This document shows, piece by piece, positions 18,153 to 64,000 of a stretch of 64,000 bases of DNA (position 1 is its first letter; every line of letters starts with the position of its first letter). This DNA is from Chloranthus sessilifolius (Eukaryota; Streptophyta; Magnoliopsida; Chloranthales; Chloranthaceae), in NCBI GenBank assembly GCA_021018995.1, contig CM037588.1, forward strand, positions 36,267,000 through 36,330,999, read 5' to 3'. The notes under the pieces are model-generated. The model saw only the letters and a program-made list of their open reading frames with translations, did no database searches and was not told the origin of the DNA. Made by a program: the position numbers and the translations under genes.

Positions 18153-18271
18153 TGCTTATATATCGATTTTGAGGTATCTCGGGACACCAAAAGCTTCGGG
18201 TGGGGTCTCCACCATCTTTTTAAAAGGAGAGCGCATCGTCGCGACGGACTCGAGAGAGCCACAATTAAATA
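18153..18271 (+). repeat. Element B 5' LTR, last ~120 bp only
   Basis: TGCTTATATATCGATTTTGA to the PBS matches B's 3' LTR around 59801-59915 (shared GAGGTATC(T/C)CGGG and AAAAGGAGAG(C/T)GCATC). The first ~1.3 kb of the LTR is missing. Confidence 0.8.
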
Positions 18272-18273
18272 GA

Positions 18274-18291
18274 TGGCGACTCTGCAGGGGA
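18274..18291 (+). other. Primer-binding site of element B, tRNA-Arg type
   Basis: TGGCGACTCTGCAGGGGA. The consensus from A, B and F (TGGCGACTC(C/T)(A/G)CTGGGGA) fits the complement of a plant tRNA-Arg 3' end, as reported for Ogre/Tat elements. B has at least one substitution. Confidence 0.75.
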
Positions 18292-19600
18292 TGTTGTTTT
18301 AGAGCTTCTACTTGAAGTTGGCCCCACTTGCATGTGTTTTTCCTTTTATTAATTTTCTTTATTTTTGCTCACTTACCCCTACAATTCGGCATTTTTATAC
18401 CTACCCCTACGATTATGTCAATTACTGCCTTAGCCGTTTGGCAGGCCTACTTGAGCATTTTTACTCACCCCTACGATTATGTCATTTACACATCTTAGCT
18501 GTTTGGCAGGGCTACTTGAGCATTTATGATTCCGTCTTTACTCACCTTAGTCGTTTGGCAGGTTACTTGCTAATCTAACTTCATATTTCATCAATGGACG
18601 TCGGCCCGTAGAGGCGGCACGAGATTCTCACTACCCATTTTTGGACTTAAAGAAAACTCCCTAACATTGAACTTAAAATTAAACAAACAAGGGACCTAAT
18701 TCAATTAGCTTTGCACGCGTAGATTTTACAAAAGGGTGGGAAAATAGGTTACGATACATCTGTCCCGATTCTTGATAGAGAAGCAGCCCTAGTGGTTATG
18801 ATCTCAAAAGGAACCACCCCTTCCAGTATCTGAAAGACGCTTGTGCAAAAGGTATATCGAGTGGGTCACCGAGCTTGTTACTTAGCCTAAAACCCTTGGT
18901 GAGTGAGTTATTGGAACCGCACCGGCCATGTATCCCTATGCACAGAAAGGAGGGACCCGTTAAAACAAAGAAAAATAGTCGCAGGAAGCATTGCTTCAAG
19001 AAAACCCTAAAAATAATTAGACCAACTCTGGTCTGCTGCTGTCAAAAAAAGATATACATATATAATTTTTAGCCTTGTGTATATAAAATATACGCTAAGC
19101 TAAAAAATCCATAATTTTTTACCTTGCATATATAATATATATGCAAAGCCAAAATTCTGAATTTTTAGCCTTGCATATATAATATATACGCTAGCCTATT
19201 TTGGCTGAGTAGCCCGAATTTGGGCCCTTCTTCACAGTTTCCTGAACCCCCCGCTTAGTGGTTGTAATACCCCCGATAAATCTCACACCATTGACTTCCA
19301 AATTGCCCTCACCGGTCAAGAGAGGTCGCCCTCTTATTGACTCTTTCGAGGGATCGGGCATCACGTGGATTTCTGTGCCTTTACATAGATCAAAGGGTTC
19401 CCTTTAATTCTTCCAAAGCGCATTGGGATCTTTCCGTGGGAGGCATTATGGGTGTGAACGCCACCCAAAAAGGGAGTTCCAAGTCCCCAAAGAACACCAC
19501 AAGAGTAGAAGATGCTAAATAGTTTTCATTTCCAAAAAATTCAAAATCACCAAACAATAAAAATTCATCCAAAAAATCTAAAAAACAAGGAAAACCTGTG
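18292..19600 (+). other. Element B 5' leader with tandem hairpin repeats
   Basis: Non-coding. At 18360-18565 about three repeats contain ACTCACCCCTACGATT followed by a small stem such as GCCTTAGCC-GTTT-GGCAGGC (18427-18446). A block at 18595-18623 (GGACGTCGGCCC, then GGCGGCACGAGA) and one at 18760-18880 are conserved in A and F. Three palindromes lie at 19071-19197. No ORF here is conserved among the three elements. Confidence 0.7.
19071..19197. repeat. Palindrome cluster of element B, leader copy (3 units)
   Basis: Units are at 19071-19101, 19121-19149 and 19167-19197. Each has arms of the type AGCCTTGCATATA and TATACGC(A/T)AGGCT around an AT centre. The same palindrome recurs in B's 3' LTR at 58743-58921. 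It is unrelated in sequence to A's palindrome but sits at the homologous place upstream of gag. Confidence 0.85.
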
Positions 19601-19699
19601 GTACCATAACCACGGCATCATGTTACCCTCGATCATCCCATAGGGGAAGGAGACAGAAAGTGTTCGGGCCTCACCCGAGGAATCCATACCTGACCAGCC

Positions 19700-24927: not shown

Positions 24928-26331
24928 TGTTATTCTCTGAAAAGTACCACTTTTCACCCCTTAACCTGGCCCTTGATGGACCTCTGAGCATGTTAATAAT
25001 GGTTTTTAAGTGTGTTTGTGTAAATAATAGGAAAATTATAGCTTAAGATGCAATCCATCATTTGTCAAGCCAAGAAAAAAATTTTGACCTAAGTTGTGAA
25101 ACTGAGGGGTCTACATTGAAGGCATCATGGTGGTTCACACCATTATGGCAACATAGCATCCAGTGGTGTCTTAAGAGGCTTGTTGAAGGTGAGAAGTGGA
25201 GCCCAAGATGAGAGAAGATGCTATTGCTACATTCCACTTGTTGAGCACCTAGAAATAGGGATTCAATTTATTCATTCAAGCAAGCAAGCAGCTGCAACTG
25301 CTGTTGCACAAGTTGAGGAGGCCCTGTATTTATGGATCTCAGCAGCTAAATCAACCACTCAAGTAGGCATAGGAGCTGCTACACCATTCCTCTGAACCAC
25401 CTTGCTGCAACCAACCATCCAAACCCAAAGCTAATTTGAAGTTGTTGATGCTTAAGAATCAAGCACACTCAAAGACTGTGATAGTTGTAGTAGTTTCAAT
25501 CTCTAGTAGCATCTATAGCATTTCACCTTTATGAACTTCACAACAGTGCAACTCCTGTTGAGCTCACAGCTGCAACAAGCCTACCCAACTGCAAAATTCA
25601 AGCCAAGTTAAGATATGTATCTGCTGCAATGTTTAGAGCTGCACACCAGTTGCTGGAGCAACCAAATGTTACTAAGCACTTCATAATCATAGCAAAAGTT
25701 CATAAAGACCTAGGAATAGCAAGTTTCAAAAGCTGCTACACTATATATTCAAGTTGTGTGCTGATGCAATTCGCATACTCTCAAGCATTCCAACATGCTT
25801 TGCTGCCACAAAGAGCTCAAACAAGTTACACTTCAAAGCAAACTTCAAGAGTTGTTGCAGCACCCACTCCAGCATATCAGAGCCTGGTGCACTACTGTGT
25901 ATAATTCAAAGATCAGCACATGAAGCTCCTCGAGCAATTGAATGTATTTGTAGACACTCGAATTTGGCCCAAGGCCCGATTGAAACACATTTCGAGAGAG
26001 GCGCATTTTCGAGTTTTTGATGGCGTGTATGGAACCCTTAGGAATCACCCTAGATCCCCCAGGAACCTACCCCAAACCTTTAGAAACCAACCCCGACCCT
26101 TAGAACCCTTTTTAAACCCTAACCTAACCTTCCCAGGCAATAAGGAGGAGGGGTGCACCAAAATTGGCTACGACCCTCTACAGTGACCAACTCTTATACC
26201 ATCGAAGTGTAGAGGTTGTCAGCTTTCCAACGGTCTAAGAATTGCCCCAATCGGAGGTATATATCAGAAGATATGACAATCCGAACCCGGAGGGCAGGAA
26301 GGTAATTTCAAGGTGGCCCCCCCTAGGGATT

Positions 26332-26586
26332 TGGCCTGACTAATAGTCGCGTCAAGCTATTTCTCCCCTAGAAATGGCCTAGCGCAACTAATAGTTGCAC
26401 CAGGTATAATTTTTGTCTGGCGCAACTATTAGTTGCGCCAGGCCAATCCTCCCAGATATTAAGTCTGGCACAACTAATAGTTGCGCCAAATTTAAATGGT
26501 GGCCCCCACCCCGCAAACTAACTTCCAGCACTGTTCTTCACTGTTTTACTGTGCATTTGCCTGGCACAACTATTAGTTGTGCCAGG
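26332..26586. repeat. Palindrome cluster of element A, 5' LTR copy (5 units)
   Basis: Units are near 26332-26356 (degenerate), 26376-26404, 26417-26442, 26464-26490 and 26560-26586. The consensus arms are TGGCGCAACT and AGTTGCGCCA around AA/TA or TT/AT, giving a 23-base palindrome. The cluster lies 280-540 bp upstream of the TATA box. Confidence 0.92.
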
Positions 26587-26866
26587 CATATGAACAGTAA
26601 CTATGGGATTTTGCCCTGAATTTTGTGTTTAGGGTTTGACTTGTTGACCACCTCAACCTTTGGGGTATGTTTTGATAGTTCTGTTGCACCCATTCCTTAC
26701 CTATTTGCAACCCTCCAAGTGGCCTAAAGCCTCACCCCATCATCCACCATTAGAACCACCTTCACACCTTTTCAAGCTCTCAAAATCTTAGGAAACCTTA
26801 GATTTGAGATTACCTAATTGCTAACCCCAATTAGCATTTAATTAGCCTCCTAATCTACTCTTTTCC

Positions 26867-26874
26867 TATAAATA
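26867..26874 (+). promoter_or_regulatory. TATA box of the element A 5' LTR
   Basis: TATAAATA followed by GAGCCCCCC. It is conserved at 49900-49907 in the 3' LTR and as TATAAATAGAGAC in F. Confidence 0.75.
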
Positions 26875-27603
26875 GAGCCCCCCACCCCTTGGTTTAGGGG
26901 TTGAGAAATTTTCTGAAGAGAGAAAGAGCTCAAAGTGAGATGTTCTTCCTCCCTTTTGTGCATTATTTTCACCCAAATTTTAGAACCTCCCAAACTCATT
27001 TCAAGCTTGTTCTTGCATCCAAAACCCTTAGCCTAGGTGTGTGTGATCCCCTAGCCTCCCTTCCCTACCTCTTAGCTTCAAGTCCTAGGAGTTATAACTC
27101 CCATTTTTCACCATACAAGGCCTTCAAGAACTCATCAAAGCAAGCCACGCAAGGCTCCTCTACGGTGCTATAAGGGCCAGAGGGCTCCGGCTCTCCCCTT
27201 TCTTTTCCTATCTCTTTTTGGCTTTCCCTACTCTTTCATTTGTGCCGTTACGCCACCGAATTTTCAGTAGGAACGGAGGGGCACCAATAGGATTGGAGGC
27301 CCATTTGGGCAAGAGGGAATCATTTCCTTATCTTTTACATCATTTTATTTTTGGCCATTAGTAGAGACCGCGTTAAGCGGGTTGATCGGGTGTCTAACAC
27401 CTTCCCGATCGATAACCGAAGACCCTACCCAAGAGCCTTTGGTGTGGACCAGATTCAGAGTCATATTTTTAGCACTTAGGTGATCATAAAAAGAACTAGG
27501 TATCCTGGGACACCGAAAGCTCCTAGTGGCAACTCTATATTTTTTATTGTTAGAGTGTGCATCGTCGCGACGGGGATCGCATCAATTTCCACGGTTGCAC
27601 AGA

Positions 27604-27621
27604 TGGCGACTCTACTGGGGA
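27604..27621 (+). other. Primer-binding site of element A, tRNA-Arg type
   Basis: TGGCGACTCTACTGGGGA begins two bases after the LTR end. It differs by one base from the sequence expected for a plant tRNA-Arg primer. Confidence 0.85.
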
Positions 27622-27711
27622 CTAGCTAGTAGAGCTTCCCCTTGAACTAGGCCTATTTTTATTTTTCTAACATTTTATTGCTGTTTTTTCATTATTTTTG
27701 CTATTTTTTTT

Positions 27712-28080
27712 CACTCACCCCTCCGATTACGTCATTTTACTCACCCCTACGATTCCGCTTTAAATTTCAGCAATTTTTGCCTAGTCACTTGACTGGCATC
27801 TTTTTCACTCACCCCTACATTTCCGCTTTAAATTTTAGCAATTTTTGCCTAGTCACTTGATTGGCACCCTTTTTTTACTCACCCTTATGATTCCGTTTTA
27901 AAATTCAGCATTTTTCGCCTAGTCACTTGACTGGCACCTTCGTTACTCACCCCTACGTTTCCGCTTTAAATTTCAGCAATTTTCGCCTAGTCACTTGACT
28001 GGCACCTTTCTTACTTTCCTTTACAATTTGGCTATAATTTTCAGCACTTTATATTTCCCGCCTAGTCGCTTGACTAGCCC
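27712..28080 (+). repeat. Leader tandem repeat of element A with five small hairpins
   Basis: About five units of 68-75 bp each contain ACTCACCCCTACGATTCCG, then TTTAAATTTCAGCAATTTT, then GCCTAGTC-ACTT-GACTGGC. The stem-loops are at 27779-27797, 27847-27865, 27917-27935, 27985-28003 and 28060-28078. B and F have the same layout just after the PBS. Confidence 0.85.
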
Positions 28081-29059
28081 CGTCATTTTCATTTTACTTC
28101 TATATCCTAACAGTGGACACCGGCCGTAGTGGCGGCACGGGATAATCACCCCCGGTCTTTGAACTAAAGAAAACTTCCAAAAAAAAGAAAAAAAAACTTT
28201 GAAAAAATTAAATTGAACCAAGTTAGGGAGCTTAATTAATTTGTTTTGCGGGTTAGATTTTTCAAAGGGTGTTTAGGCACACATACAAACACCCGGGTCT
28301 TAGTATGGCGGCAGCCCCTAGTGATGATGATCCAGAAAAGTCCTAGCCCACCTAGTATCTGAGAAGGCACTTGCGTCGGAGGTATATCGGGTGGGTTCCC
28401 ATTTCGAAGCTTAAAACCCTTGGGGTGCGTGCTAGAGAGTTATACCGGACTCAATCCTTTAGGTGCGGTGAGGAGAGAATCGATCACCATAAAACAGCTC
28501 AATTCTCGGAAGCCTAGCTTCCACAAAAAACCAAAAAAAAGACTCATTTCGGGCATCAGCTCTTGTTCTCTGCATTACGAGAGGCAATTTTACTGGCGCA
28601 TGTATTAGTTGCGATTAAAACATCTTGGAATTATAATGGCGAACTAATAGTTGCGCCAGCTTTAAATTCTCAATTTTTACCTTGGCGCAACTAATAGTTG
28701 CGCCAGTGTAAAAGTCCTCCCCTGTAACCTGGGTGCAAGTATTAGTTGCGCCAGGTCTGTTTGGCAGCACCCAACCCGAATCCTTGGCCCTTTCCACCTC
28801 CTAAGCTCCCCGATCAGTGTGCATAGTGCCTTGTTTAGGTCCCGCCATCTCCAACACCCAATACTCCCCCGTCGGTCAAGAGAAGGCAACTTCTTTTTGG
28901 CTTATTTTGGGGGATCAGGTCATTTACCTCGATTTATGTGCCTTCAATAGATCGAAGGTTCTCCTTCGATTCTTCTGAAGTGCACCGAAACCGTTGCCGC
29001 CGGTCTTGAATTAAGGTACGAGAGCCACCCGAAAAGGGAATTCCAAGGCCTCGGAACCC
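28081..29059 (+). other. Element A leader between hairpin repeats and gag
   Basis: Non-coding. Blocks conserved with B and F include 28114-28142 (GGACACCGGCC, then GGCGGCACGGGA), GTATCTGAGAAGG near 28355, and GGTATATCGG near 28381. A palindrome cluster occupies 28591-28755, and CGGTCAAGAGA near 28872 marks the approach to gag in all three. Confidence 0.7.
28591..28755. repeat. Palindrome cluster of element A, leader copy (4 units)
   Basis: Units are at 28591-28614 (degenerate), 28636-28660, 28681-28707 and 28727-28755. They have the same TGGCGCAACT...AGTTGCGCCA consensus as in the LTR. Confidence 0.9.
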
Positions 29060-38420: not shown

Positions 38421-38499
38421 TATGTGTGTATCTGTAAAGGGGTTGTCTACGCCCCTTTTTTCTGTGTATGTGATCTGTGCAAAAAGTTCTATGTGCAGG

Positions 38500-40041
38500 A
38501 AGGAGTTAACGGCCCAGCTCGCACTTCAAAGCACTAATCTCAGCATGAAGATCATCCTCTCAGACATTCCTCTCAGTCAACCAACGACCATGCAAGCTCT
38601 TGAACCTCTTTCGAGAAGAGTCGACGGCTCCAAAAGCAACGCTCAGTGATTCCTTCAAACGGAGAACCTCGCTCTCTGCTGTGTCTGCTCTAACCCTCTC
38701 GCATGCCAAGAGTTCTTGCAGGACCCTCTTCTCATCCACCAATAGCCCGATATGGGTCCGGAGCGCCGCCTCTTTCTTTGGCTAGGGGCCTCTAGTATCA
38801 ATGATCTCTGACAAATCTGGGTCATTAGTGGCAGGCCGCTCAGTCAACAGCCAGGCCTCGTACTCAGGAGAAGTCCTAACCGAGTCTCCCTGCTCAAAAT
38901 CACACATCAATGTCGACTGATGTGTCTCCCAAAGAGCAGCAATCCGGTCTATGTCCCCAGAGGATCCCCTAGAAAAAATCAAATCACATAAAGGGGGTTT
39001 GGCCTCACAAGGCACCTGCTAAGGGCAGCCGAATTGACGCAACACCCGGAATGGGAAGTAGAAGGTGCTGCCGGTTAGTCCTAGGAGGGTGATGCCCTCA
39101 TGGTCCCTAGAATGAATCACTGGGAAGGCCCGGTCCAACCAAGGAAGCCTCCAAGTCAGCTCAGCATCAACCAACCAAAGTTTTAGAGCTAACATATCAC
39201 CCTGGGGAAGCAAGTGGCATCTACCCAAAAAACATCGGGCCACCTCGCCTCGAGCAACATAAAAGCGGGGCACAGGCCTCAAAACGGCAAAATGCTCACC
39301 CAGCCAGACCTAGAGCAACAAGGGGCATCCCTGAAGGCCATCCGCCTTGCCCAAGGTAAAAGAATTAAGGCATTAGTACAGCTCGGCAAGCATCAACTGC
39401 ATCATGGACCAGCCCGCCTCTAGCTCCATCAAAATATCACAAACTGCCAATGAGAAACTTTCTCCCCCGGTATAGAAGAGGATTTTAGAGATGAGACCAA
39501 GTGCTAGAGCTTTCACATTAAAGACATTCCTAACCGAAAATTTTCGAAGGCTTTCATCACTGAAAAGTTCTTTGAGGAATTTTAGCGAACACCTTGTGGA
39601 CCCCCCGATGAGACTTTTCTCATACTCGGATTTCTCCAAACCGAGAGTAAGATGATTGGATCTGGAATACCCTGGCTTAGGCATAACTCTTACAAGGTCC
39701 CTGTGAAGCTTCAGGCTAGACAAATTGGATAGCTCCTCGAGGGTTGGGGTCAGCTCCCGCTTCCCAAAACATAATACATGGAGGTTCACATCCCAGCACG
39801 AAGCGGCAGCATGAAGGAGTTCCCACCGAAGAGGAATCTCTAGGAAGGAAGGAAGGCCAGATAGACCAAGGCGCTCCAAGTCAGCGAGCTCACTCTCGTT
39901 CAGACTCCCAAACCAAGCCGCCACAAACATGGGCCCCAGGCCCAACAAAGAGGATAAATTGGCTCTGAACCCTCCACGTAAGGGAGGGTTAGGAAGCGGG
40001 CCCATAAACATACAAGGATCTTTTGGGAAGACAAGAGTCAA
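38500..40041 (-). pseudogene. Antisense gene 2 of element A: DUF7745-like protein with coiled-coil tail
   Basis: One minus-strand frame runs from about 40041 to 38500. The first ATG in frame is near 40014 (MFMGPLPNPPLRGG). Its core, LGLGPMFVAAWFGSLNESEL, IPLRWELLHAAASCWD and KRELTPTLEELS, resembles the DUF7745 family that occurs in plant transposon-linked proteins. A Leu-rich segment (GLISKILFYTGGESFSLAV) follows. The C-terminus (VDEKRVLQELLACERVRADT, then SEVLRLKESLS) is a likely coiled coil. Stops near 39373, 39311, 39019 and 38782 lie in the same frame. The function is unknown. The family call is from memory of sequence character. Confidence 0.6.
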
Positions 40042-40169
40042 TGTAGGGTGACGGGCCCACCTTGGAAAAATAAGAGCAAAAGAGGCCAGTCAAAGGAGCC
40101 AAGTCAAACAAAAAAGAAATAATTTCTGGGCCAACTCGGGCATATAAGGCCCCACTCCCCCCAAGTCAA

Positions 40170-40340
40170 ACCTGGCACAACTAATAGTTGCGTCAGTGCA
40201 TTGCTATCCCCGATTTGGCCTGGCGCAACTAATAGTTATGCCAGTACATTGCTTCCCCATTTTGGCCTGGAGCAACTATTAGTTGCGCCAGTGAAATTTC
40301 CCTGGATTTTTAGCCTGGCGCAACTAATAGTTGCGCCAGA
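40170..40340. repeat. Palindrome cluster of element A upstream of antisense gene 2 (4 units)
   Basis: Units are at 40170-40197, 40219-40244, 40265-40291 and 40313-40340, with the same consensus as in the LTRs. On the minus strand they lie about 130-330 bp before the start of the DUF7745-like gene. A TATA-like TTATATG (plus strand 40142-40148) lies between. Confidence 0.9.
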
Positions 40341-40489: not shown

Positions 40490-43400
40490 CTACGTTGAGG
40501 TGTGCGACCCAAAAGGCCACTTTCTAAAAAGGCATTGAGCAGGCACATCCTGCAGAGAAACAGATTTGATGCCAAGCAATTGGAGCATAAAATCAAAGCA
40601 TGACCATCTCCCAAATGATAATAAAAAACAAATTTGTTTCCAAAAGTACCACACCAACAATTCTCCAAATTGTTTAAAAAATAGCTCCAAAACAAAATCT
40701 AAAAAATGCTGAAGGAAACTAATAGCCAATTCCTTGCTCGCTCCCTTGGACTTCTTACGACAGCGAGAGGCGCTCTGATAGGTCCTCATGTCCCCCACTC
40801 TAGACCACGCCTGTAAAATCCTACTGAGCAGGGAACGCGACTCCTTAGCCCGAGCATGCTACAAGGCACAGTCAAGGACAAGATCAGTCAAGGGGCCAAT
40901 GAAAATGAAAAAAAGAGAGGAGTCGAGCAGCCAGGTACTCACCATCTCCACCTCTCGAAGCTCTGCCAGATGAAGATGGTACTCCGCATATTCCATAGCC
41001 GAGTTGAAGTCCTACGATACAGTATTCAATTGTTAGAACACCCCTGAAAGCATGTACCGAAGGAAACCAAAATAAAGGAGAAGTGGCTCATCTGAAAACT
41101 CACCCCAGGGACCACCTCAGGAGGAGGAACGCGGGCTGCCTCGGCAGAGAGCCGTGCCTATTGGTCTACGTTATCACAGAGGTCTGAGAGGAAGCCATCG
41201 TCAAGACGCCGAAAGGTCCCATAAGCTGCAGATGAAACCCCACCATGAACACCCGCCTGAGAGGTACCCGACGGACCAGCACCTGATGAACCCTCGCCCG
41301 AGGGACCCACACCAGAAGGACCAGCACTAGAGGGATCTACCCCTGACATGTCAGCAGCACTCGGCCCACCTTCACCGTCTGAACCATCTCCCGGAGTAAA
41401 CTGTGACCCAGACAAGAATCTTTTCAGATAAGACTAAGGCCGAGTAAAAGTGAAAGAGAAACTAATCCAAGCTGACAGGAAGTTACTTGACCAAGTGGGC
41501 CCCCGAACGTAAGGAAATTAGCGCTAGGGACAAAACGGGGCAGGATGAACTGGTAGGGCAGGCACTCGCACCAAGCATGATAATCCCCAGGCACATGGAG
41601 AGCATGAATGGGGAACCCATTGTTGAAAAAGGTTGCTGTCAACTCCTCAATACTGCCAGCAGGACTCAAAACGTCAGCCGGTGGGTCCACGGGTATGGCG
41701 TAGTAGCCCTGAAACTAACGCACCACCCGCTCCCCTAGATAGTAGCATTTGGCCCACGCTCCATAGAAGAAGACGGCGGGTCGATTGTTGAATAGGCGGG
41801 AGGCACCCACGGCTGCTCGGTCCCAGAAGGGGGATGTCAAGTACGGATCAGGGAGGATCTGCTCAAAATCAAAAAGCAAGAGAGACCAAGTAAGCAACAC
41901 CTCAATCAAAAGAAATGCCCAAGCTGAAAGTGAACAAGGGTTGAAAAGTTATCACCTGCTCAGGCACCATCAAATCAAGCTGAGACCTTAGGCCCATTTC
42001 CAGGTGCTTTAGGCCCATGTCACGACGTCGGGCCTGATGTCAGTTGCTGAGGAGGGGATAGGTGAGCACCTCCGAGAAAAGGAGCAGGCGCCCAGGGTGA
42101 AAGTGGTGATATTGTTAAGACCTGAAAAGTACCACTTTTCACCCCTTAACTTAGCCTTTGATTATACCCTTAGCCATCTAATAAAGGTTGGTTAAGTATT
42201 TTCTGTAGATAATAAACAGCAGTGCAATAAGGCCATAAATCATGTTAAGGAGCCTGTATTGGCACCAGAAGTCCCTCAGAAGAATGAGCCATGAATTCAG
42301 ACCTGAGGCAAGCCTCGCGCAGCTAACAAAGCTCCAGAGGATTTAGAAAATTTTGCTTCGCGCAGTCCTCGCAAAGTCCCAAGACTTCACTTCTCGTGCA
42401 GTTGAGTGACAGACTAGCTTCAGAATCTTACCTCGCGCAGCTATCGTGCAGTAGCCGCGGGATGCAAATGTCAAGAGAACCTGTCGCATAGTTTAGAAAA
42501 GCCTCAAAGCTATCGCGAGGATCCTCGCGAAGTTCCATTAAGAAGTGAACTTCTCGCGCAGTTCTCATGTTGTTCAGGAAGAAAGCAGCCTCGCGAAGCC
42601 AGAGTAAGCCTTGCGAAGATCTATTATGAAATGGAATGCTCTCGTAGTTCCCGTGCTATTCACAAGTAGCAATCCAACTGCGCGAAGCCCAATCCAGCGA
42701 GAGCTTAACTATCTACCTCGCAACTGCTCAAAGCATCAAGAAGCTGCAACCCCGCGAAGCTGTAACCCTGCGACGTCTGAAGTTTTAATGCAAACTCATC
42801 CTCGCAAAATCAGTGCTACCACGCGACAAGTCTGGGAATCGACTGCAACCTGGCGAAGCTCTGAACTCCAACTTCCATCATTCTATAGAGGACATTTTAA
42901 GGATTTCCAGTGATTAGGGCACGCACTCCCGTGCTCAAATCTCCATGCACGTATCTCGAGGCATCCAAGGATCATTAATAGGCCACGTGGCATCGCTAAA
43001 ATTAGGGTTTCCTAACCCTAATGCACCACCACACCCACTGCTATATAAACCTAAGCCTGGTTTAGGTTTAGGGACACACTTTTAGACTTAGACCCTCGGA
43101 AGAGCTCAGACCTTATCACTGATAAGAGATCTGAGATCGTTTTCTTTTCTGTTCTTCTGTAGTTGTAAGTAGTTTTCCTTTTTTTTTTCCTTCTCTCCAT
43201 GGACCAGCACTTGTTGCCCATGCCTATATATGTTTATTGAGATTAGATTAATGGAATTTGTGATTGGGTATTGTACTTTTATGGGATTCGTGTGTTTGTG
43301 AGCTGTTCTGTGCAAGGCTGCTGCCTTGTGATCCGCCATTGCTTTGGCTGTGATTCAAAGCAATGGAGGACTGATTCTAAGGATCCATTCAAATCCAAGT

Positions 43401-45615
43401 GACCTGTGTGTCTGGGCTATCATGGTCTAATATAGCCTTAGCCCCACCACAGGACCCACTAGATCTAAAATCCCCATGGAAGCCTGAGCTGGTAACCTTG
43501 TGACCATGGTGGTGGCAGCAATATTCTTGTTTTGTTTTGGGCTCCGTGAGGAGGATAGCCTCTGGGATAGTCTGTGACCATTCAAGTGGACAGGTTATAG
43601 CCTTAGGATGAATCCAATCCGCCGATCCAAAATGAATCCTTCTTCTCCGAGCCTGAGCTTGTAGCCTGGTAGGAGATTGTACAGAGGCAGACTCCCCTAT
43701 ATTAGCATAGACTCGCCATCAGATGGCAGATCTGATCTGGGTATGGAGATTGTAGGTTTGTGACTAGACCATTGTAGTCCCACTCAAGCAATGGATAGCT
43801 AGATCTAAGGTGGTACTCAATCTCTTACTGGTTCTATGTGTCTGGGCTATCATGGTCTTATACAGCCTTAGCCCCACACATAGAGCTTTAGAGGTTGAGG
43901 TTCCCTATGGATTCCTGAGCTTGTAGCCTGGATGAAGTAGTGCCTACAATGATTAACTTGTTTTGACCCATCTCTGGATTGTGGTTCCCTTATGAGATAG
44001 TCTGTGACCATTTAAGTGGACAGGTTATAACCTTAAGGGATTGGATCATGGCACAAGGATGAGTTGGATTCTTTCTCCTCTTTGGTGATAATGTAGCCAT
44101 TGGATGGGATTTCTATAACAGCAGACCTGGATCTGAGTCATAAATTCCAGCAGATCTGAACTCAATAGCATACTTCTCACCCTTTTATATTTATTTTCCC
44201 ACACTCCATCCATCTTCTCAACCATTTCTGTAGTTAATTCATTAGGCTACCTTAGGATACTTAGAATAAGTGACCCTAAACTCCCCTCCTTTTAGGACTA
44301 CCAGATCTGTAGTCAGATCTGGAGGGACTACTAGAGATGGCTCCCTTGGAGCTGTAGATCACCTTTTCCCTATGGGACAAACTCTTACTTATCAAAACTT
44401 GCTACAAATGGACCCTGTATCTTGCAGGTCTAGGATTTCTCAATTGTGCTGATTCCATCCCCTATTTTACTTTGATTTTAAATTGCTTTTACCACCAACA
44501 AATAAAGTAAGCACATCTGGGGTCGCAACAGATATCCCCATACCTAAAAAAAGGGGCATGACACGAGAGCAGGTCAGTAATATAAATGGATCAGTCAAAA
44601 AAGAAAAAATGATGAATAGATGATAGCGATAACAAAAGCAAAGGAGTGAGGAATTACCTCTAGGACGGCCCAAAATCCCACGGCAGACTTCGAGTCCCCA
44701 GTCGTGACCCGGGATAAGTTGTACATCAGCCAAGCGTATCCCGCCCCTCCCCAGTCATGCCTGGGAACATCGCCCCAATTATCCATCACACTCAATAGGG
44801 CCAGGCTGACCCATCCCCTGCTGGCATTTGTAAAAAGTGTCTTGCCCAGCAAGAGTAGGAGGGTGATTCGAGCTAAAACGATCGCCCGCTCTGGCACAAT
44901 GTAAAGCACCCGATCTGGCTGGCCCAAGTCTACCAACTCATCAGCAGAAAAGAGGGAGGTCAGCCAGGACATCTTGACCTCTGTGCCATGGGTCTTCCCA
45001 CGAGGAGGATAGGCCCCGATCAACCGAATGATGTCCTCTCGGGTCGGTACCGCCAAGGTAGATATCGGGACTCCGCCAATCCTAATGCCAGTAATCATGG
45101 CCCAATCAATGGGCGTCAGCGTCAGCTCGGCGTACGGCATGTGGAACGTCATGGTCTCGGGACAGAACCTCTCAATAAGGGCATTCAGATAGGCGGCATC
45201 AGCCCTCATGGCAGGGCAAGACAAGAACTCCCCAAAGCCCACCTGCTCCAACAAAACTTTCACCACGGGGGGGACATAAAGGTTGAACTCGTGGAAGTCA
45301 AGCCACCCCCCGCGGAACACAATGTTGGGCAGCTCCTGCACCCAAAGAAATACACATCAGATGGTAGAGGTAAAGAAAAAAAATGTGCAAAGGAAAGAAA
45401 CTGAACCTATCTTTTACCTTGCCCGCTATTCCAAAATTGGAGATATGGGTGTGCTGCTGATGGAGGAGGCCGACCTGGGCAGCCTCACCCTGCATCTCGA
45501 GCCATGGGCCCGCTCTCCGCTCCACCCAGAGGAACTGCTCTCCCCGCGGACCATACACTATCTCGGGCCCCTCCTCGTGGCCCTCCTCGGGAACATGCTC
45601 ATCACCGCCCGACAT
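40490..45615 (-). pseudogene. Antisense gene 1 of element A: plant mobile domain (PMD) gene, at least 7 exons
   Basis: Exon 1: 45615-45418 (ATGTCGGGCGG). Exon 2: 45335-44658. Exon 3: 44543-44536 plus 42112-41956, split by solo LTR D. Exon 4: 41858-41487. Exon 5: 41400-41104. Exon 6: 41011-40943. Exon 7 begins at 40858, with an open frame to 40490. Introns begin GT(A/G)A or GTGA and end CAG or TAG. Exon lengths 198, 678, 165, 372, 297 and 69 are all multiples of three. Exon 2 holds the PMD core (RFCPETMTFHMPYAEL, then PIDWAMITGIRIGGVPI). Exon 3 continues VWGYHHFHPGR. Exon 5 has a Gly/Ser/Pro repeat (SAGPSGVGPSGEGSSG). Exons 6-7 look like a coiled coil. TGA 42042-42040, TAG 41717-41715 and TAG 41160-41158 break it. 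PMD proteins (MAIN/MAIL1 relatives) are known to be captured by transposons. Confidence 0.8.
42113..44530 (+). mobile_element. Solo LTR D (Athila-type, 2418 bp)
   Basis: It starts TGTTAAGACC and ends GTCGCAACA, flanked by GATAT at 42108-42112 and 44531-44535. There is no internal sequence. It belongs with the LTRs at 6293 and C (shared AAAAGTACCACTTTTCACCCC-type start and CTCGCGCAG motifs at 42310-42860). TATATAAA lies at 43043-43050. It carries the U5 module GATAGTCTGTGACCA at 43566 and 43996. It inserted inside exon 3 of the antisense PMD gene. Confidence 0.93.
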
Positions 45616-45719
45616 GCTGGGGCAACAAAGCAATCACGTCAGAACAGATCAATGATAAAGAGCCATGATACCTTATCCTGCAAATGGGAGGTAAGTATGC
45701 TCACCTTTCCCCTTTCTTT

Positions 45720-47040: not shown

Positions 47041-47200
47041 CAGCCCGAGTTCGGGCTGTATTAACTACCCAGCCAAACCTGGCGCAACTAATGGTTGTGC
47101 CAGGCAAATGTTTGCCTCCCTTTAGCTTGGCGCAACTAATAGCCGCGCCAAGCTATTTTTGGCCCCATAATGGCCTAGCGCAACTAATAGTTGTGCCAGG
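47041..47200. repeat. Palindrome cluster of element A upstream of antisense gene 1 (3 units) plus a GC hairpin
   Basis: Units are at 47078-47104, 47126-47153 and 47172-47200, with the LTR consensus. In the second unit both arms changed while staying paired at their ends (GCTTGGCGC / GCGCCAAGC). A separate inverted repeat CAGCCCGA-GT-TCGGGCTG lies at 47041-47058. The next gene downstream on the minus strand is the PMD gene, 1.4 kb away. Confidence 0.88.
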
Positions 47201-48992: not shown

Positions 48993-50635
48993 TGTAGACA
49001 CCCGAATTTGGCCCAAGGCCTGATCGAAACACATTTCGAGAGAGGCACATTTTTGAGTTTTTGATGGTGTGTATGGAACCCTTAGGAATCACCCTAGATC
49101 CCCCAGGAACCTACCCCGAACCTTTAAAAATCAACCCCGACCCTTTAAAAACCAACCCCAACCCTTAGAACCCTTTTTAAACTCTAACCTAACCTTCCCA
49201 GGCAATGAGGAGGGGTATACCAGAACTGGCTATGACCCTTTACAATGACCAACTCTTATACCATTGAAGAGTAGAGGTCATCAGCTTTCCAACAGTTCAA
49301 GAATTGCCCTAATCGGAGGTATATATCAGAAGATATGACAGTCCGAACCCTGAGGGCAGGAAGGTAATTTCAAGGTGGGCCCCCTAGGGATTTGGCGTGA
49401 CTATTAGTCGCGCCAGGCTATTTCTCCCCCAGAAATGGCCTGGCGTAACTAATAGTTGCGCCAGAAATGGCGTAACCAATCCTCCCAGATATTAAGCCTG
49501 GCGCAACTAATAGTTGCGCCAAGTTTAAATGGTGGCCCCCACCCCGCGAACTAACTTCCAGCACTGTTCTTCACTGTTTTACTGTGCATTTGTCTAGGAC
49601 AACTATTAGTTGCGCCAGGCATATGAACAGTAACTATGGGATTTTGCCCCGAATTTTGTGTTTAGGGTTTGACTTGTTGACCACCTCAACCTTTGGGGTG
49701 TGTTTTGATAGTTCTGTTGCACCCATTCCTTACCTATTTGCAACCCTCCAAGTGGCCTAAAGCCTCACCCCATCATCCACCATTAGAACCACCTTCACAC
49801 CTTTCCAAGCTCTCAAAATCCTAGGAAACCTTAGATTTGAGATTACCTAATTGCTAACCCCAATTAGCATCTAAGTAGCCTCCTAATCCACTCCTTTCCT
49901 ATAAATAGAGCCCCCCACCCCTTGGTTTAAGGGTTGAGAAATTCGCTTAAGAGAGAAAGAGCTCAAAGTGAGAAGTTCTTCCTCCCTTTTGTGCATTATT
50001 TTCACCCAAATTCCAGAACCTTCCAACCTTCTTTCAAGCTTGTTCTTGCATCCAAAACCCTTAGCCTAGGTGTGTGTGATCCCCTAGCCTCCCTTCCCTA
50101 CCTCTTAGCTTCAAGTCCTAGGAGTTAGAACCCCCATTTTCCACCATACAAGGCCTTCAAGAGCTCATCATAGCAAGCCACGCAAGGCTCCTCTATGGTG
50201 CTACAAGGGCCAGAGGGCTCCGGCTCTCCCCTTTCTTCTCCTATCTCTTTTTAGCTTTCCCTACTCTTTCATTTGTGCCATTACGCCGCCGAATTTTTGG
50301 TAGGAATGGAGGGGCACAAATAGGATTGGAGGCCCATTTGGGAAAGAGGGAACCATTTCCTTATCTTTTACATCATTTTATTTTTGGCCATTAGTAGAGA
50401 CCGCATTAAGCGGGTTGATCGGGTGCCTAACACCGTCCCGATCGATAACCGAAGCCCCTACCCAAGAGCCTTTGGTGTGGACCGGATTCAGAGTCATATT
50501 TTTAGCACTTAGGTGCTCATAAAAATGAACTAGGTATCCCGGGATACCGAAAGCTCCAGGTGGCGACTCTATATTTTTTATCGTTAGAGTGCGCATCGTC
50601 ACAACGGGGATTGCATCGATTCCCACGATTGCACA
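48993..50635 (+). repeat. Element A 3' LTR (1643 bp)
   Basis: Collinear with the 5' LTR, ending GATTGCACA and followed by the GTATT duplication. Palindrome units are at 49392-49418, 49437-49464, 49497-49522 and 49592-49619. The TATA box is at 49900-49907. A small duplication near 49130-49160 (AACCAACCCC repeated) is not in the 5' copy. Confidence 0.93.
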
Positions 50636-51375: not shown

Positions 51376-53130
51376 CGGCCCTAAAGCTCCCAGCTGTGCG
51401 AAGCTCAAGTTCCAGCAGCAACGATTCAGAACTCAAGGGCTGTTTGGGGTTTCACACATGTCTTAGGGCACACTTACCAATGCCCACACAGATCGAGGCA
51501 TCCAAGGGCCATGATGAAGCCACAAAACTAGCTCTACAGATGCTTAGTTCTAATTGGTTGTTGCGGATTACAGCTGTTTTGGATTGTATATATTAAGCTA
51601 TTTTCTATTTTCTAAAGTATCCTGGGCTAGCTTGATATCCCCCTTTTATGGTTTTAGCTTTTTAGGGTTAGGGTTTGGTTTAGCTTCCCTTTCTTTTTCC
51701 ATTTTATTCTTTCCTCAGCACAGTAGCAATGCTAGGCTAAGATCTTTGTAAGCAATAGTGTATTCTTTCTCAAATTTGTAATAGATCTTGTATGAATGGA
51801 GTGAGTTGTTTTGGGTTGCACAGACTGCTGTCTTGGGGGCAGAGCATTGTAAGTATCTTTTGCAATGAATGCCATGTTTAAAGTTTAATTAAATCCATTT
51901 TTCTTCCTGTGTGCTGCGCATGGTGTTCTTTAACCTATGCCTTACACATGGGATTTCAAGATTTGATGCTCCCATGGAAACTTGAGCTTGTAGCCTTGTA
52001 ACCATGGTGGCAACAGTAGTTTTACTATTCCCTCTCATTGTCTATGACTAGGATAACCTCTGTGGATAGTCTGTGACCATTTAAGTGGACAGATTATAGC
52101 CCTAGGGCTGGTCTAGGTCACGGATCTAAGATGGATTCTTCTTCTCTGCACTTGAGCTTGTAGCTTTGTGAGGGATTGTTGCAGAGCCTGGTAGCCTTGT
52201 GAGGGATTGTTGTAAAACAAAACTCTACTATGTTTTACATTATTGCTATCAATGTTTAGATCTGGGAATCTATAGAGATTGCAGACTTGTGAGCTGATTC
52301 ATTGCAGGCTTTTTGTAACAATGACCAACTGAGTTTAAAGCCCCTTTCAGTCTGAGATTTCTTATGGTTTCCACTTGATTTTTGAGGACTGATTGCTCCT
52401 GTGGATGCAAGAGATTGTAGCCTTGCAAACATAGTGTCTGTAATGATTTTTCTGTTTTAAGTTAACCCATTGATTGGAGGAAATCTCTTGGATAGTCTGT
52501 GACCATTTAAGTGGACAGATTATAGCCTTAGGATCAATCCCTTCAAGTGATTGAACCTCCCCCCTTGGATAGTCTATGACCATTTCAGTGGACAGGTTAT
52601 AGCCTTAAGAGGAGTCTAGATTGTGGGGTTGATTTGGATTCGTCTACCTTGCTAATAAGCTTGTAGCCTTCAGAAGGATTGTTGTAGTCTCACCTCTTGC
52701 TATGAGTTGCAGATCTGATTTACTCACAGTTGTCTACTTCTCCATCTTTTATCTTTATGTGACCACACACATCATCACGCTTCTTTTCCCCCTTCCTTTA
52801 GTTGTAGATTTATTCCTATTTATAGATTAGTTTTATTTTTGTTTTTAGTTTAATATAGCTTAGTGACACTTAAACTCCTATCCTTTGGGTTGGCTAGATC
52901 TGTAGCCAGATCTAGAGATTACTTTACACCCTTAGAGGTTTCAGATCATCACTCCCTGTGGGACCAACTCTTACTTTTCAAAACTTACTACAATAAGCCC
53001 TGTATCTTACAGGTCTATGGTATTTTAGACTTACTGTGTTCATCCATTTCTGCATCTCTCCTCTCTTGATTATTTTCTCCACTATTTTTAAATAAGATAG
53101 CATCAAGCATTCGAAATATAGACTCCAACA

Positions 53131-55858: not shown

Positions 55859-55860
55859 CG

Positions 55861-58486: not shown

Positions 58487-58499
58487 AAAGAGGGGCATC
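58487..58499 (+). other. Polypurine tract of element B
   Basis: AAAGAGGGGCATC lies directly before TGTAGACACC at 58500. Confidence 0.85.
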
Positions 58500-59919
58500 T
58501 GTAGACACCCAAATTTATTCCAAGGCCCAATCGACACATACTTCGAGAAAGGCATACACCCAATCATCCGAAAGCACCTCTCGAACCCTTAGAGCTTAAC
58601 CCTGAACCTTTAAAACCACCCTTCGAGAACACTTAGAAGGCCTAACCAGAGCCATAGAACCCATAACTGAATCCCATTAACCCTTAGTAGACCAGCCCCG
58701 AGCCTAATTTTTGAAGCATGTTGTGTCGTTACCCAGAATTGGACCTTGCATATATTTTATATACGCAAGGAAGATTTTTCTACAAATTGGCCTTTCGTAT
58801 ATATTATATACGCAAGGCATATTTATGTTTTCAGGCTTCAGCTGCGGGCTCTGAACTTCCCTTCTTCTCAGAGAGCACTCTTCCTAAGCCTAGCATATAT
58901 ATTATATATGCATGACTTAGGAATAGTGTGTTTTTTTTTAAATGGCCGAATTTCACTTTTGGGGTTTGACTTTTCGACCACCCCAAGGTTTGAGGTTGGT
59001 TTCTTTGGGACTGTTGCACCCCTCCTAGAGTTTAGTGCTACCCTTTAGCCATATAGAACCCCACCCTATCATCTACCATTAAACCCAAGTTCCCACCTAT
59101 CTAAGCCCTAGAAATCCTAGAAACCTTTAGATCCCCATTACCTAATTGCTAACCCAATTAGCACCTTAAATAGTGACTAATCTCCTCTCCTTCTATATAT
59201 AGAGAGACACACCCCTATGCTTCAAGGCTTGAAAAAATTTCCAAAAGAGAGAATCCTTTAGAGTTTTCCCCTCCTTGTTCAAGCTTCAAATCCACAAAAT
59301 TCCATAACTAAGGTTCCCCTTTTAGACCCCATCTTCCATCACCAATCCCTTAGCTTTAGGAAGAACAAGGCTTTAGCCTATCTCTCCTACTTCCTAACTC
59401 TTAAACCTTAGAGTTCAAGACCCATCCTTCATCCTATTTGCTATCGAAAGCTCATCGGAAGTGCATTCATATGAAGGTCCACAGCGGTGCTACAAGGGCC
59501 CGGAAGCTCCAGTGCTCCCCACTATTCCTCTACCTTCTTGTGCTTTCCCTCTATCTTAGAATTGAGCCGTTACGCCACCCAAATTTTATTGGGTACTAAG
59601 GGATTAATAGGATCAGAGTGCCTTCGGGCAAGGGGGAGTGGCGCTCATTTTTTTATTTCTTTTCATATTTGGCCATAAGTAGAGCTCGCTTATGAGCAGG
59701 TTGATCGGGTGCATAATACCTTCCCGATCGATAACTGAGGCCCCTACCGAAGATCCTTTGGCATTGACCGGTGAATCGGAGTCATATTTTGCACTTCAAT
59801 GCTTATATATCAATTTTGAGGTATCCCGGGTCACTAAAAGCTCCCGGTGGTGACTCCACCATCTTTTCAAAAGGAGAGTGCATCATTGCAACAGACTCGC
59901 GAGAGCCCACGGTTGCCCA
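58500..59919 (+). repeat. Element B 3' LTR (~1420 bp)
   Basis: It begins TGTAGACACCC. Palindromes are at 58743-58770, 58790-58818 and 58883-58921. TATATATAG lies at 59194-59202. The end, expected as GGTTGCACA, reads GGTTGCCCAGA and passes into a piece resembling the inside of F's LTR, so the exact boundary is uncertain. Confidence 0.8.
58743..58921. repeat. Palindrome cluster of element B, LTR copy (3 units)
   Basis: Arms are CCTTGCATATA and TATACGCAAGG (58743-58770), GCCTTTCGTATA and TATACGCAAGGC (58790-58818), and CCTAAGCCTAGCATA with a GACTTAGG end (58883-58921). The family is the same as at 19071-19197. The position relative to TATA is the same as A's palindromes. Confidence 0.88.
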
Positions 59920-60861: not shown

Positions 60862-61300
60862 TGTAGACACCCCGTTTTTGACCACTCGAAGTATAAAAAA
60901 CTATTTAGTCAACCATTGACCTTGCCCTGAATTATGAAAAAACCTCTATTTTCGGAAATTATACGCTAGAATCCCAGCATATAATTGATTATATGCTAGA
61001 CTCCTAGCGCATAATTAGACCCGACCCAGTCCGAACTTATTCCCCAATTATACGCTGGAGTCACAGCATGTAATTGATGATACGTTGGACTCCCAACGCA
61101 TAATTAGTCCTCATGAACTAGGACTCCAAAACTTTGTGAACCGAATTCTCTCCCGGATTATAGGCCTAGATCCTATCATATAATTCATTATACGTTGGGA
61201 TCCCAACATATAATCAGTCTGCTTTTGACTGAGACACTCTCTATCTCACTCCCAACCCGGCTCAACGAGTTGTAGATTATCCAAATTCTTATTATACACC
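60862..61300 (+). repeat. Tat LTR remnant G, cut by element F
   Basis: It starts TGTAGACACCCCG like the other Tat LTRs but is otherwise distinct. Six palindrome units in three pairs fill 60957-61215: 60957-60986, 60987-61018, 61046-61075, 61076-61107, 61157-61185 and 61186-61215. The arms are of the type AATTATACGCT / AGCATATAATT. Element F begins at 61301 after ACACC. The rest of G is not in the window. Confidence 0.75.
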
Positions 61301-62877
61301 TGTAGACACCCAATTTTGGCCCAATCCTTTCGATATTGTATGGAGTCGATCACTATAGTTCATGTTGATCAGAGCTTCCGAAAGCACTTCTCATACCCTT
61401 AGAAGCCTTCCCGGACACTTAGAATCCATACCGGACCCCTAAAACCCATACTGGACCTTTAGAACCCATTAGAACCCTAGATACCCTTAGGAAGACTTAG
61501 AAAAATCTTAGAGAGAGACTCCCAATCCCCGAAAAGTTTCAAAGTCAGCCAATGGAGGCTCGAGGCCCCAAAAAAATTACATTTCATTGTTTCATGATGT
61601 TGTGCGGCCCTCGACCTTCCAATTAGCATTACTTTTGAGAGAAAAGTCTGATTGACTGTTATATTATATCATTTTGGGATAGCTCGAAATGATACATTCA
61701 ATGGGCATGAAAAAAAATTAACCCATAAATTTCCCATGCGTGCATTGTATGCATGCATGACCAAAAAAAGTCACCTTCTCTAGAAATGCTCCAACACGGG
61801 CCCTCAATTTCTGAGTTTCTTTTAGGATTTAAAGCATGCATGCATAGTTTGCACGCACGCCTTAAAACCTGGAAAATCCAAATTTTAGAGTTTTTCAAGA
61901 TGGGCTTTTGATTGTGGATCATCCAAAAGTTTGGGGTGTGTTTCTATAGAACTGTTCTACCCCTCCCAACCTTAGGTATCACCCCTTTGCCATTTAAGTC
62001 ATCACCCCATCATACACCATTAAATCAAATTCCCTCTTCTCCAAGCCCTAGAAAACTTAGAAAACCTTAGATTTCCCATTACCTAATTGCTAAACCAATT
62101 AGTAATTTAAATCCCCCCTAATCACCTTTCACTCTATAAATAGAGACCCCCCTCTTGTTTAAGGAGACCTTGAAATTTTTCTTAAAGAAGAAACTATACA
62201 AAAATCCCTCCTCATTCCAAGATTCAAACCATCCAAACCTTAGAACTTTATTACTTCCCTCACACCACCACACTTCTACCATCAATATCTTTAAGCCTTT
62301 AGCAAGTAAGAATCCATATCTCATCTCTCATACCATCATTCCCACGCTCATAGCTCCCAAGCCTTAGTAAGTTAGAACCCTTCTCTAACCCATCGTGCTA
62401 TCGGAAGCTCACCGGAGTTAGTATCAACGCGAAGATCCGATGATAGTGCTACAAAGGCCCGAGAGCTTTGATTCTCCCCTCTTTTCCACTACCTTCTTTT
62501 ACTTTTCCCTTATCCTATGATTTGAGTCGTTACGCTGCCAAAATTTTGATGATTGCGGAGAGCTTAATAGGATCCAAGTGCCTTCAGGCAAGGGAAAGTG
62601 CCACTCATTTTCCTCTTTATTTTTCCTTTTTATTTTATATTTTGTCATAGTAGAGGCCACTTATGAGTGGGCTAATTGGGTGCCTAACACCTTCCTGATT
62701 TGTAACCGAAGTCCCTACCTAGAGGCTTTAGCATAGACAGGCAATTCGGTGTCAAATCTAGCACTTCGGTGCATATGATATTGATTTGAGCGTATTTTGG
62801 CACACCAAAAGCTTCAGGTGGCGACTCCATATACGAGCGCATCATCGCAACAGGTCCACAAAACCCACAGTTGCACA
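61301..62877 (+). repeat. Element F 5' LTR (1577 bp)
   Basis: It begins TGTAGACACCCAATTTTGG and ends CAGTTGCACA. The palindrome pair is 61735-61759 and 61831-61864, with arms of the type ATGCGTGCAT / ATGCATGCAT. TATAAATA is at 62135-62142. The shared phrase AACTGTT(C/G)(T/C)ACCCC follows the palindromes, as in A and B. Confidence 0.88.
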
Positions 62878-62879
62878 GA

Positions 62880-62897
62880 TGGTGACTCCACTGTGGA
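62880..62897 (+). other. Primer-binding site of element F, tRNA-Arg type
   Basis: TGGTGACTCCACTGTGGA lies two bases after the LTR end. It differs at two positions from the expected TGGCGACTCCACTGGGGA. Confidence 0.8.
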
Positions 62898-64000
62898 TAA
62901 TTTTTAGAACCTTTTCTTGAAGTTTTGGTCCCATTGCATGTGTCATTTTCCTAGTATGTTTGTCCTTTTTGGCCTAGTCGGTTGACTGGCACTGTGTTTA
63001 TTTTTCTACTTACCCCTATGATTCTGCATATTTTTCCCTAGTCATTTGACTGGCCACGTTTATTATTCGCCTAAGCCATTTGGCGGGCCTACTTGATAAT
63101 TATATTTAAATTCTCGTCATTTATATTTCTGTAATTTTCGCCTAGTTGCTTGAGTGACGCCTTTGCTTTTACTCACCCTACGATTCGACACATTACATTT
63201 TAGCCTAGTTGCTTGACTAACATCATCATTTTTCTTACGATGTGATTGTCATATAACACCCTTGGACGCCGGCCCCTGGTGGTGGCATGGGACTCTCATA
63301 GCCCGAATAAAGGATGGTGGCGAAAGGCCCCAATTTTGAACTTAATCAAGCTCCCCTTTTATTGAATGATAAAATGAACCAAGAAAGGACATAATAATTT
63401 CATTTCGCGCGAGTAGCTTTTTCAAAAGGGGAGGGAAAATTAGGCACCGATAGACACCACCCAGTCCCAAGTAGAGCGGCAACCCCTGTGGTGATGATCT
63501 CGAAAAGGACCACCACATCCAGTATCTGAGAAGGTGTTTGCATCGAAGGTATATCGGTTGGGTGACCGAACTTGTTAAGAACCCTAAAACCTTGGGGAGA
63601 GTGCTAGTAGAATTGAATTAGCCTTGTATCCCTAGGTAAAGAAAAAAGTCCTAGGAGGCATTGCCTCAAAAACCCAAGTTAAAGGCCAACTTGAAATAAC
63701 AGCCTGGTATTTTTTATACAAAATATACCGTGTGTGCATAGTATGCACACATAGCTAAAAAATTTCAAAATTTTGTACATGCGTGCATAGTATGCATGCA
63801 TAGCTTATTTGTAGTGAGTTCAAATTTTGGGTCCTTTCTCAGTCCCCCTAACCCCCCCGCGCGTTGGTTTCAAGATTCTCGATACTTCCTACATTCTAAG
63901 GGCCCAATGCTCTCACCAGTCAAGAGAGGTCACCCTCTTATTGACTCTTTCGAGAGATCATGGAACCGCATGGAAATCTGTGCCCTTAAAGGTCGAGAGA
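62898..64000 (+). other. Element F leader with tandem hairpins and palindromes
   Basis: Small stems: 62972-62990 (GCCTAGTC-GGTT-GACTGGC), 63036-63055 and 63069-63088 (CTAAGCC-ATTT-GGCGGG), then two weaker ones to about 63215. Conserved block at 63263-63292 (GGACGCCGGCCC). Palindromes at 63730-63756 (GTGTGTGCATA / TATGCACACAT) and 63778-63805 (ATGCGTGCATA / TATGCATGCAT) match those of F's LTR. Confidence 0.8.

What the first reader, a model, noticed from the sequence alone, without database searches (positions are those of the whole stretch)
18153..64000. Each Tat element carries its own palindrome family at the same two homologous sites
A uses TGGCGCAACT...AGTTGCGCCA. B uses CCTTGCATATA...TATACGCAAGG. 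F uses ATGCGTGCATA...TATGCATGCAT. LTR remnant G uses AATTATACGCT...AGCATATAATT. In A, B and F the palindromes sit in the LTR just before the shared phrase around CTGTT(G/C)(C/T)ACCCC upstream of TATA. They also sit in the leader just before the conserved approach to gag (GGTCAAGAGA). Flanking sequence is homologous between elements; the palindromes are not. Within one element the LTR and leader copies match each other. This looks like an element-specific identity tag that is replaced as a set. Possible roles, all inference, are a dimeric self-recognition site, a hairpin for self-encoded packaging or priming, or a source of hairpin small RNA.
Basis: seen in the sequence. Interest (0 to 1): 0.9.

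Follow-up and report, generated by a model that had tools for sequence, protein, structure and literature searches.

The report
Matched palindromes at all retrotransposon promoters
Giant plant retrotransposons here carry a family-specific DNA palindrome in front of the forward and backward genes that could be checked, which looks like a private docking site for a regulatory protein that each family re-tunes at its sites together.

Summary
In the 2.17 Gb genome of the window the A palindrome pattern occurs 9033 times, a second class 8531 and a third 922; reversed controls 0. Two corrections. First, the palindromes are not unrelated: A, B, F and other families share a 19-bp dyad, GC-N5-TA-N-TA-N5'-GC, and mainly the half-site changes. 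Second, there are four sites, not two: the LTR (U3), the leader before gag, and, on the opposite strand, directly upstream of two antisense genes that encode plant mobile domain (PMD) proteins. Element A and one GTATA-class element (L054) carry their own class at all four sites; a second GTATA element (L036) at three, its leader showing none. Gene-1 products of the two classes are 60% identical. Copies are mostly 47-48 bp apart. Best explanation: arrays of a dimeric protein-binding site that co-regulate the element's promoters, probably read by an element-encoded factor, with PMD proteins as candidates. Binding was not shown. RNA-hairpin roles are disfavoured, not excluded. Nearest precedents: Sirevirus palindromic LTR boxes and the VANDAL/VANC motif system. 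New variant of a known kind.

The parts
25949..27601 (+). 5' LTR of element A (TG...CA; 5-bp direct repeat GTATT at 25944-25948 and 50636-50640)
   Evidence: read; LTR pair 90.8% identical
26332..26584 (.). A palindromes in 5' LTR, 5 copies, about 280-535 bp upstream of TATAAATAG at 26867
27604..27621 (+). primer-binding site of A, tRNA-Arg-like (tRNA match recalled)
   Evidence: a PBS pattern matches 1372 + 1363 times in the genome, control 0
28594..28753 (.). A palindromes in the leader, 4 copies, before gag
38480..40089 (-). antisense gene 1 (aORF1), limits approximate, interrupted by stops in this copy
   Evidence: the window piece 39376-40089 alone matches no Pfam family; the homologous frame L016:5067-6176 is PMD, PF10536 7.7e-14, and DUF7745 1.4e-8
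40173..40338 (.). A palindromes upstream of aORF1, 4 copies at 47-48 bp spacing
40700..45640 (-). antisense gene 2 (aORF2), limits approximate, PMD, interrupted by an insert at about 42115-44540
   Evidence: PF10536 2.8e-18 for 44598-45356 minus strand; insert and ends read by eye
47080..47198 (.). A palindromes upstream of aORF2, 3 copies at 48 bp spacing
48993..50635 (+). 3' LTR of element A, with 4 palindromes at 49393-49617
19074..19194 (.). B palindromes in the leader of element B, 3 copies (spacing 49 and 47)
58500..59903 (+). 3' LTR of element B (end approximate), palindromes at 58745-58914 (3 copies, spacing 47 and 98)
61301..62877 (+). LTR of element F, palindromes at 61736-61758 and 61836-61858 (spacing 100)
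63730..63801 (.). F palindromes in the leader, 2 copies (spacing 49)
60958..61214 (.). G palindromes, different architecture (about 28 bp), in an LTR remnant

Best explanation
The palindromes are promoter-proximal arrays of a dimeric DNA-binding site. Each site is a 19-bp dyad with a fixed frame (GC...TANTA...GC) and a half-site that differs between element subfamilies; sites mostly repeat at 47-48 bp. Arrays stand upstream of each transcription unit that could be checked: the LTR promoter, gag, and two antisense PMD genes. A trans-acting dimer that reads the half-site would switch on, or keep unsilenced, all these promoters together. The most likely reader is made by the element itself, with the PMD proteins of the antisense genes as candidates, which would make a self-amplifying loop private to a subfamily and usable by copies that have lost the genes. 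Shown: positions, frame, class agreement between sites, PMD identity, a TATA-like box next to the gene-1 arrays. Inferred: protein binding, activation or anti-silencing, and PMD as the binder.
For: Class A: arrays at 3 copies of the aORF1 promoter (window, L016, L023) and 4 of the aORF2 promoter (window, L014, L015, L020). Class GTATA: L055 and L057 (aORF1) and L056 and L058 (aORF2) of two elements hold 12 sites, all of class GTATA, two of them with one deviating base. Both GTATA aORF1 arrays are followed by CTCTTTATAACCC, and in L055 by a 319-aa frame, open at the end of the stretch, 60% identical to the class-A PMD protein. Third class GCATG at +15.0 and +18.9 kb from the PBS of L034, by position only. 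In 30 PBS-anchored loci: 49 sites in the LTR window, 42 in the leader window, 0 in the other 56 kb; reversed sequence 3. Spacing. Frame kept while the half-site changes on both arms. Class mostly follows LTR clade. Host PMD proteins MAIN/MAIL1 with PP7L are required for expression of genes that carry a promoter motif (passages of PMC7156037 and PMC9899485).
Against: No binding, expression or chromatin data. Element B lists no antisense frame of 110 aa or more in 55861-58499 (PMD not searched there) yet has palindromes, and L018 passes from pol to the 3' LTR without the antisense block and keeps LTR palindromes, so the factor must act in trans or be a host protein. Direct DNA binding by PMD is unproven in the passages I saw; no meaningful solved structure matched. 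7 of 22 elements differ between LTR and leader; the leader of L036 and 3 other LTR-bearing elements show no site. L042 and L050 lack the LTR palindrome at the homologous place. LTR arrays are about 280 bp or more from the TATA box, and the GTATA aORF2 promoters show no evident TATA box. The palindrome is only modestly more conserved than its flanks (0.84 against 0.77 and 0.79) and less than the stretch used as anchor (0.87).
Confidence: 0.6

Rival explanations
1. The palindromes bind a host transcription factor, as in stress-responsive LTR promoters; subfamilies differ because they adapted to different host factors.
For: Palindromic LTR boxes of Sireviruses are read this way in print (PMC2829016 passages; PMC10760457 passages). 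Copies without the antisense block keep sites (L018).
Against: One frame with a changed half-site, agreeing over several sites of an element, suggests one protein family with changing specificity rather than unrelated host factors.
Confidence: 0.25
2. The palindromes act as RNA hairpins, for dimerisation, packaging or priming of the element's RNA.
For: Strong inverted repeats; leader copies would be in the genomic RNA.
Against: Two of four sites lie upstream of antisense genes; mispaired positions are G-T/T-G 51 against A-C/C-A 53 in LTR plus leader, so no RNA-wobble bias (weak, since many copies are decaying); centre TANTA and 19-bp length are kept across classes although a loop need not be.
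Confidence: 0.05
3. The palindromes are targets or sources of small RNAs, and turn over as the element escapes silencing.
For: Sirevirus palindromes are small-RNA hotspots (as reported in PMC10760457 and PMC5311732, passages).
Against: Does not explain class agreement over sites, the fixed frame or the spacing. May be a consequence rather than the function.
Confidence: 0.06
4. No function: a repeat unit of about 48 bp that spread inside each element by tandem duplication and gene conversion.
For: 48-bp tandem array at 40171-40339; 85-bp units of the antisense-promoter sites are 64-74% identical to one in the 5' LTR.
Against: In the loci read, sites lie only by LTR, leader and antisense promoters, the half-site changes on both arms, and the three classes are kept in high copy number; a neutral repeat would not be expected to do so.
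Confidence: 0.04

Closest known systems
Sirevirus repeated motif (RM) boxes, Ty1/copia (PMC2829016)
   Same: High-copy palindromes with a conserved core, clustered in the LTR upstream of the TATA box and also 5' of an accessory gene (env); vary between families
   Different: Different superfamily and core (CGG-CCG there; GC...TANTA...GC here); antisense genes and agreement over four sites not described in the passages I saw
VANDAL/VANC sequence-specific anti-silencing (PMC5735166, PMC10398659)
   Same: Rapidly changing short motifs in noncoding DNA of one TE family, in repeats near its genes, changing together; idea of a private element-encoded reader
Grande gene23 / Retand antisense ORFs of Tat-type elements (PMC7264820, PMC11963269)
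   Same: Antisense accessory genes between pol and 3' LTR; gene23 has its own promoter and a nuclear product
   Different: Retand's antisense domain is TRP28, here PMD; no palindromic promoter arrays in the passages I saw
Host PMD proteins MAIN/MAIL1 with PP7L and the DOWN motif (PMC7156037, PMC9899485)
   Same: PMD proteins needed for expression of genes that share a promoter motif
   Different: The DOWN motif (CATGCAGTTT in MORC1) is not the dyad found here; direct binding unproven

Membership tests
Tat lineage of Ty3/gypsy | additional RNase H domain upstream of integrase | tested here: met
   RVT_3 (79-186) then rve (356-452) in one ORF 35191-36759; the first RNase H was not looked for
Tat lineage of Ty3/gypsy | tRNA-Arg primer-binding site (as stated for Ogre in PMC9289625, passage) | tested here: inconclusive
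   TGGCGACTC... directly after the LTR; the tRNA match is recalled, not computed
Retand | antisense ORF with TRP28 (PF04195) | tested here: not met
   of 6 antisense frames scanned (3 of the window, 2 of L016, 1 of L014) 3 give PMD and none gives PF04195
Ogre | intron between gag and pol | not tested
   no transcript data
Sirevirus RM boxes | Ty1/copia element with CGG-CCG palindrome core | tested here: not met
   RNase H before integrase in the Tat manner; core is GC...TANTA...GC
VANC-type anti-silencing | element-encoded protein binds the motif and removes methylation | not testable with these tools
   no binding or methylation data
VANC-type anti-silencing | motif in repeats in noncoding regions, differing between related families | tested here: met
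   resemblance of working only
Plant mobile domain proteins | PF10536 above gathering score | tested here: met
   aORF2 of the window 66.7 bits, aORF1 of L016 52.1, aORF2 of L014 60.8; cut-off 34.9

The most novel reading that the evidence does not exclude
Each Tat subfamily encodes its own PMD-based, dimeric, sequence-specific activator or anti-silencer that docks on the dyads at all the element's promoters; half-site and protein co-evolve, so subfamilies in one genome run as mutually insulated regulons, and host MAIN/MAIL1 are relatives of these factors that came to serve the host.
Probability: 0.3. Interest if true: 0.92.

Novelty: new variant of a known kind. Interest (0 to 1): 0.74.

Why it matters
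It gives the widespread but unexplained PMD genes of plant retrotransposons a concrete, testable target: a DNA dyad in front of the genes of the same element, in natural variants that differ by a few half-site bases. If true, it would show that private, co-evolving regulator-target systems, known from VANDAL DNA transposons, also arose in LTR retrotransposons, and it bears on how host PMD proteins came to control transcription.

Tried and rejected
A shared CCCGAATTTGG box downstream of the arrays looked promising by eye but is not enriched (136 against 119 in reversed loci). Protein database searches with aORF1 (L016) and aORF2 (window) found no homologue at E up to 1e-3. The PDB gave one match at E 0.56, a designed protein, not used. 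Structure prediction was not attempted. RNA-wobble test: no bias, taken as weak evidence only. Leader-anchor, protein and F-class searches of the genome did not complete (68, 71, 74, 76, 78, 80, 84, 88; 125, 129), so classes B and F have no genome counts. Palindromes as insertion targets (PMC6911290, seen only as a listing) were not tested.

Limits of the counts: windows were chosen. L005-L024 were picked by the A palindrome, and 4 of them (L009, L010, L017, L019) are the same elements as L025, L027, L029 and L032, so one search counts those twice. All loci fetched come from the first contig. labels a site by the nearest piece within 350 bp; its reversed control gave 9 in 270,740 bases. One weak A copy (L023:31-53) lies outside all labelled pieces. 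Apart from element A, no class-A element was read at all four sites. Majority classes include ties (L030, L048). In the tree, L035, L044 and L047 sit on long, unsure branches; L035 and L044, of class GTATA by their leaders, fall outside the GTATA clade. One search also lists a GTATA site 20.4 kb past the primer site of L054, not examined.
Full report
Setting. The window is C5:36267000-36330999 of a 2.17 Gb genome and holds nested giant Ty3-type elements. Element A runs from 25949 to 50635 with LTRs 90.8% identical and a GTATT target duplication. Its pol frame has RVT_3 before rve. Between pol and the 3' LTR it has two genes on the minus strand. The second is PMD (PF10536, 2.8e-18). The first is interrupted here and its window piece matches no family, but the homologous frame in L016 is PMD too (7.7e-14). 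Element B surrounds A; F and the remnant G follow.

The palindromes. A has 20 copies within 5 substitutions: 5 in the 5' LTR, 4 in the leader, 4 upstream of antisense gene 1, 3 upstream of antisense gene 2, and 4 in the 3' LTR; none elsewhere in the 64 kb and none in the reversed window.

One frame. Aligning LTRs and leaders of A, B and F puts the palindromes in register. Sites follow GC-N5-TA-N-TA-N5'-GC: GCAAC in A, ATATA in B, GTGCA or ATGCA in F. In 30 elements found by their primer-binding site alone (30 loci cut out of 1372 + 1363 exact matches), 91 sites fell in the LTR and leader windows (49 and 42) and 0 in the other 56 kb, against 3 in the reversed sequence; the windows were set after a first look. 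The half-site positions that vary most are the second (C/T), fourth (A/T) and fifth (C/A/G); the first is G or sometimes A. Over 50 loci, 197 sites lay by LTR (105), leader (78), antisense gene 1 (7) or gene 2 (7) pieces and 0 elsewhere, reversed control 9; 4 elements are in that set twice. Spacing is mostly 47-48 bp, with 37-38, 97-101 and some other values in LTRs; B and F keep it (47, 49, 98, 100).

Set-wise change. Of 32 elements 22 have sites at LTR and leader, 4 at the LTR only, 5 at the leader only, 1 at neither. Within-element half-site identity is 0.847 against 0.648 permuted (0 of 5000). The majority class is identical in 15 of 22, 13 of them class GCAAC; L026, L028, L030, L034, L037, L048 and L051 differ. 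Classes mostly follow clades of the LTR 3' part, with L035 and L044 as unsure exceptions. LTR and leader of A share no match of 100 bp or more. Genome counts on the forward strand: A 9033 (centre bases free), GTATA 8531, GCATG 922, reversed-pattern controls 0. For two GTATA elements the palindrome list showed clusters about 14 and 18 kb past the primer site. Small fetches showed them to be the antisense promoters: in L055 four GTATA dyads before TTTATAA and a PMD-like frame, in L056 two before a splice-donor-like GAAGGTAATCATT; L057 and L058 repeat both. L054 thus has class GTATA at all four sites; L036 has it at the LTR and both antisense promoters, while its leader showed no site. The L055 frame is 60% identical over 319 residues to the class-A protein of L016; it was not itself run against Pfam. 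GCATG sites lie at +15.0 and +18.9 kb in L034, by position only.

Promoter context. In class A the array of antisense gene 1 is followed by CCTTATATRCCC. That of gene 2 is followed by ATTTAAACAG in L014, L015 and L020 and by a changed form in the window, then by a donor-like AAGGTAAYCAT. The GTATA gene-2 promoters show no evident TATA box. In the LTR of A the dyads are about 280-535 bp upstream of TATAAATAG. Whether the leader array serves a second promoter or an enhancer is unknown.

Mechanism. A dyad with fixed frame and changeable half-site, at regular spacing, upstream of genes on both strands, is what a dimeric transcription factor site looks like. Agreement in class between sites requires a common trans factor or homogenisation; unit similarity of 64-74% between the 5' LTR and antisense-promoter arrays shows that copies may also have spread as units. 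Mispairs show no RNA-wobble preference (51 against 53, with 61 others), a weak point against hairpins. The element-encoded PMD genes sit under these same promoters. [quoted passage not shown] That makes PMD a good candidate; it remains inference.

Comparison. Sirevirus boxes are the nearest anatomy (PMC2829016, passages), VANC motifs the nearest logic (PMC5735166, passages; PMC10398659, outline and abstract). Antisense accessory genes are known from Grande, with its own promoter (PMC7264820, passages), and Retand (PMC11963269, abstract and passages). In maize, Ty3 elements were reported to lack an obvious peak of hairpin-like structure (PMC10760457, passages). Titles and abstract starts listed by searches (6 of 6; 2 of 2; 8 of 8; 12 of 24; 6 of 6; 15 of 1591; 8 of 576; 6 of 6) named no palindromic promoter arrays in Tat elements; these lists are partial, the library holds open papers only, and Bousios 2016 is not held.

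Noticed in passing
window 1749-2223: A separate cluster of ATCGATTAATCGAT palindromes with about 20/41-bp period, outside the stretch given.
   Followed up: no
window 60958-61214: G remnant carries a palindrome of a different design (about 28 bp, ATTATRCGYT...), in units of about 30 bp.
   Followed up: partly
window 42115-44540 and 50641-52600: Two insertions that share a piece (43552-43686 and 52050-52186, 79%) and CTCGCGA-like words; one interrupts antisense gene 2 of A.
   Followed up: no
window 27735-28050: 68-bp tandem repeat in the leader of A; similar words by eye in the B and F leaders.
   Followed up: no
L042, L050: Lack the LTR palindrome at the homologous position; L042 is nearest to F in the tree, yet F has LTR palindromes.
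   Followed up: partly
L014, L015, L020, L056, L058 and window 45640-47080: Antisense gene 2 may have a 5'-UTR intron: a conserved AAGGTAAYCAT after the promoter, then a long low-complexity stretch before the likely start codon.
   Followed up: partly
window 32497-33429: G-patch domain in the gag-pol stretch of A (5.2e-9).
   Followed up: no
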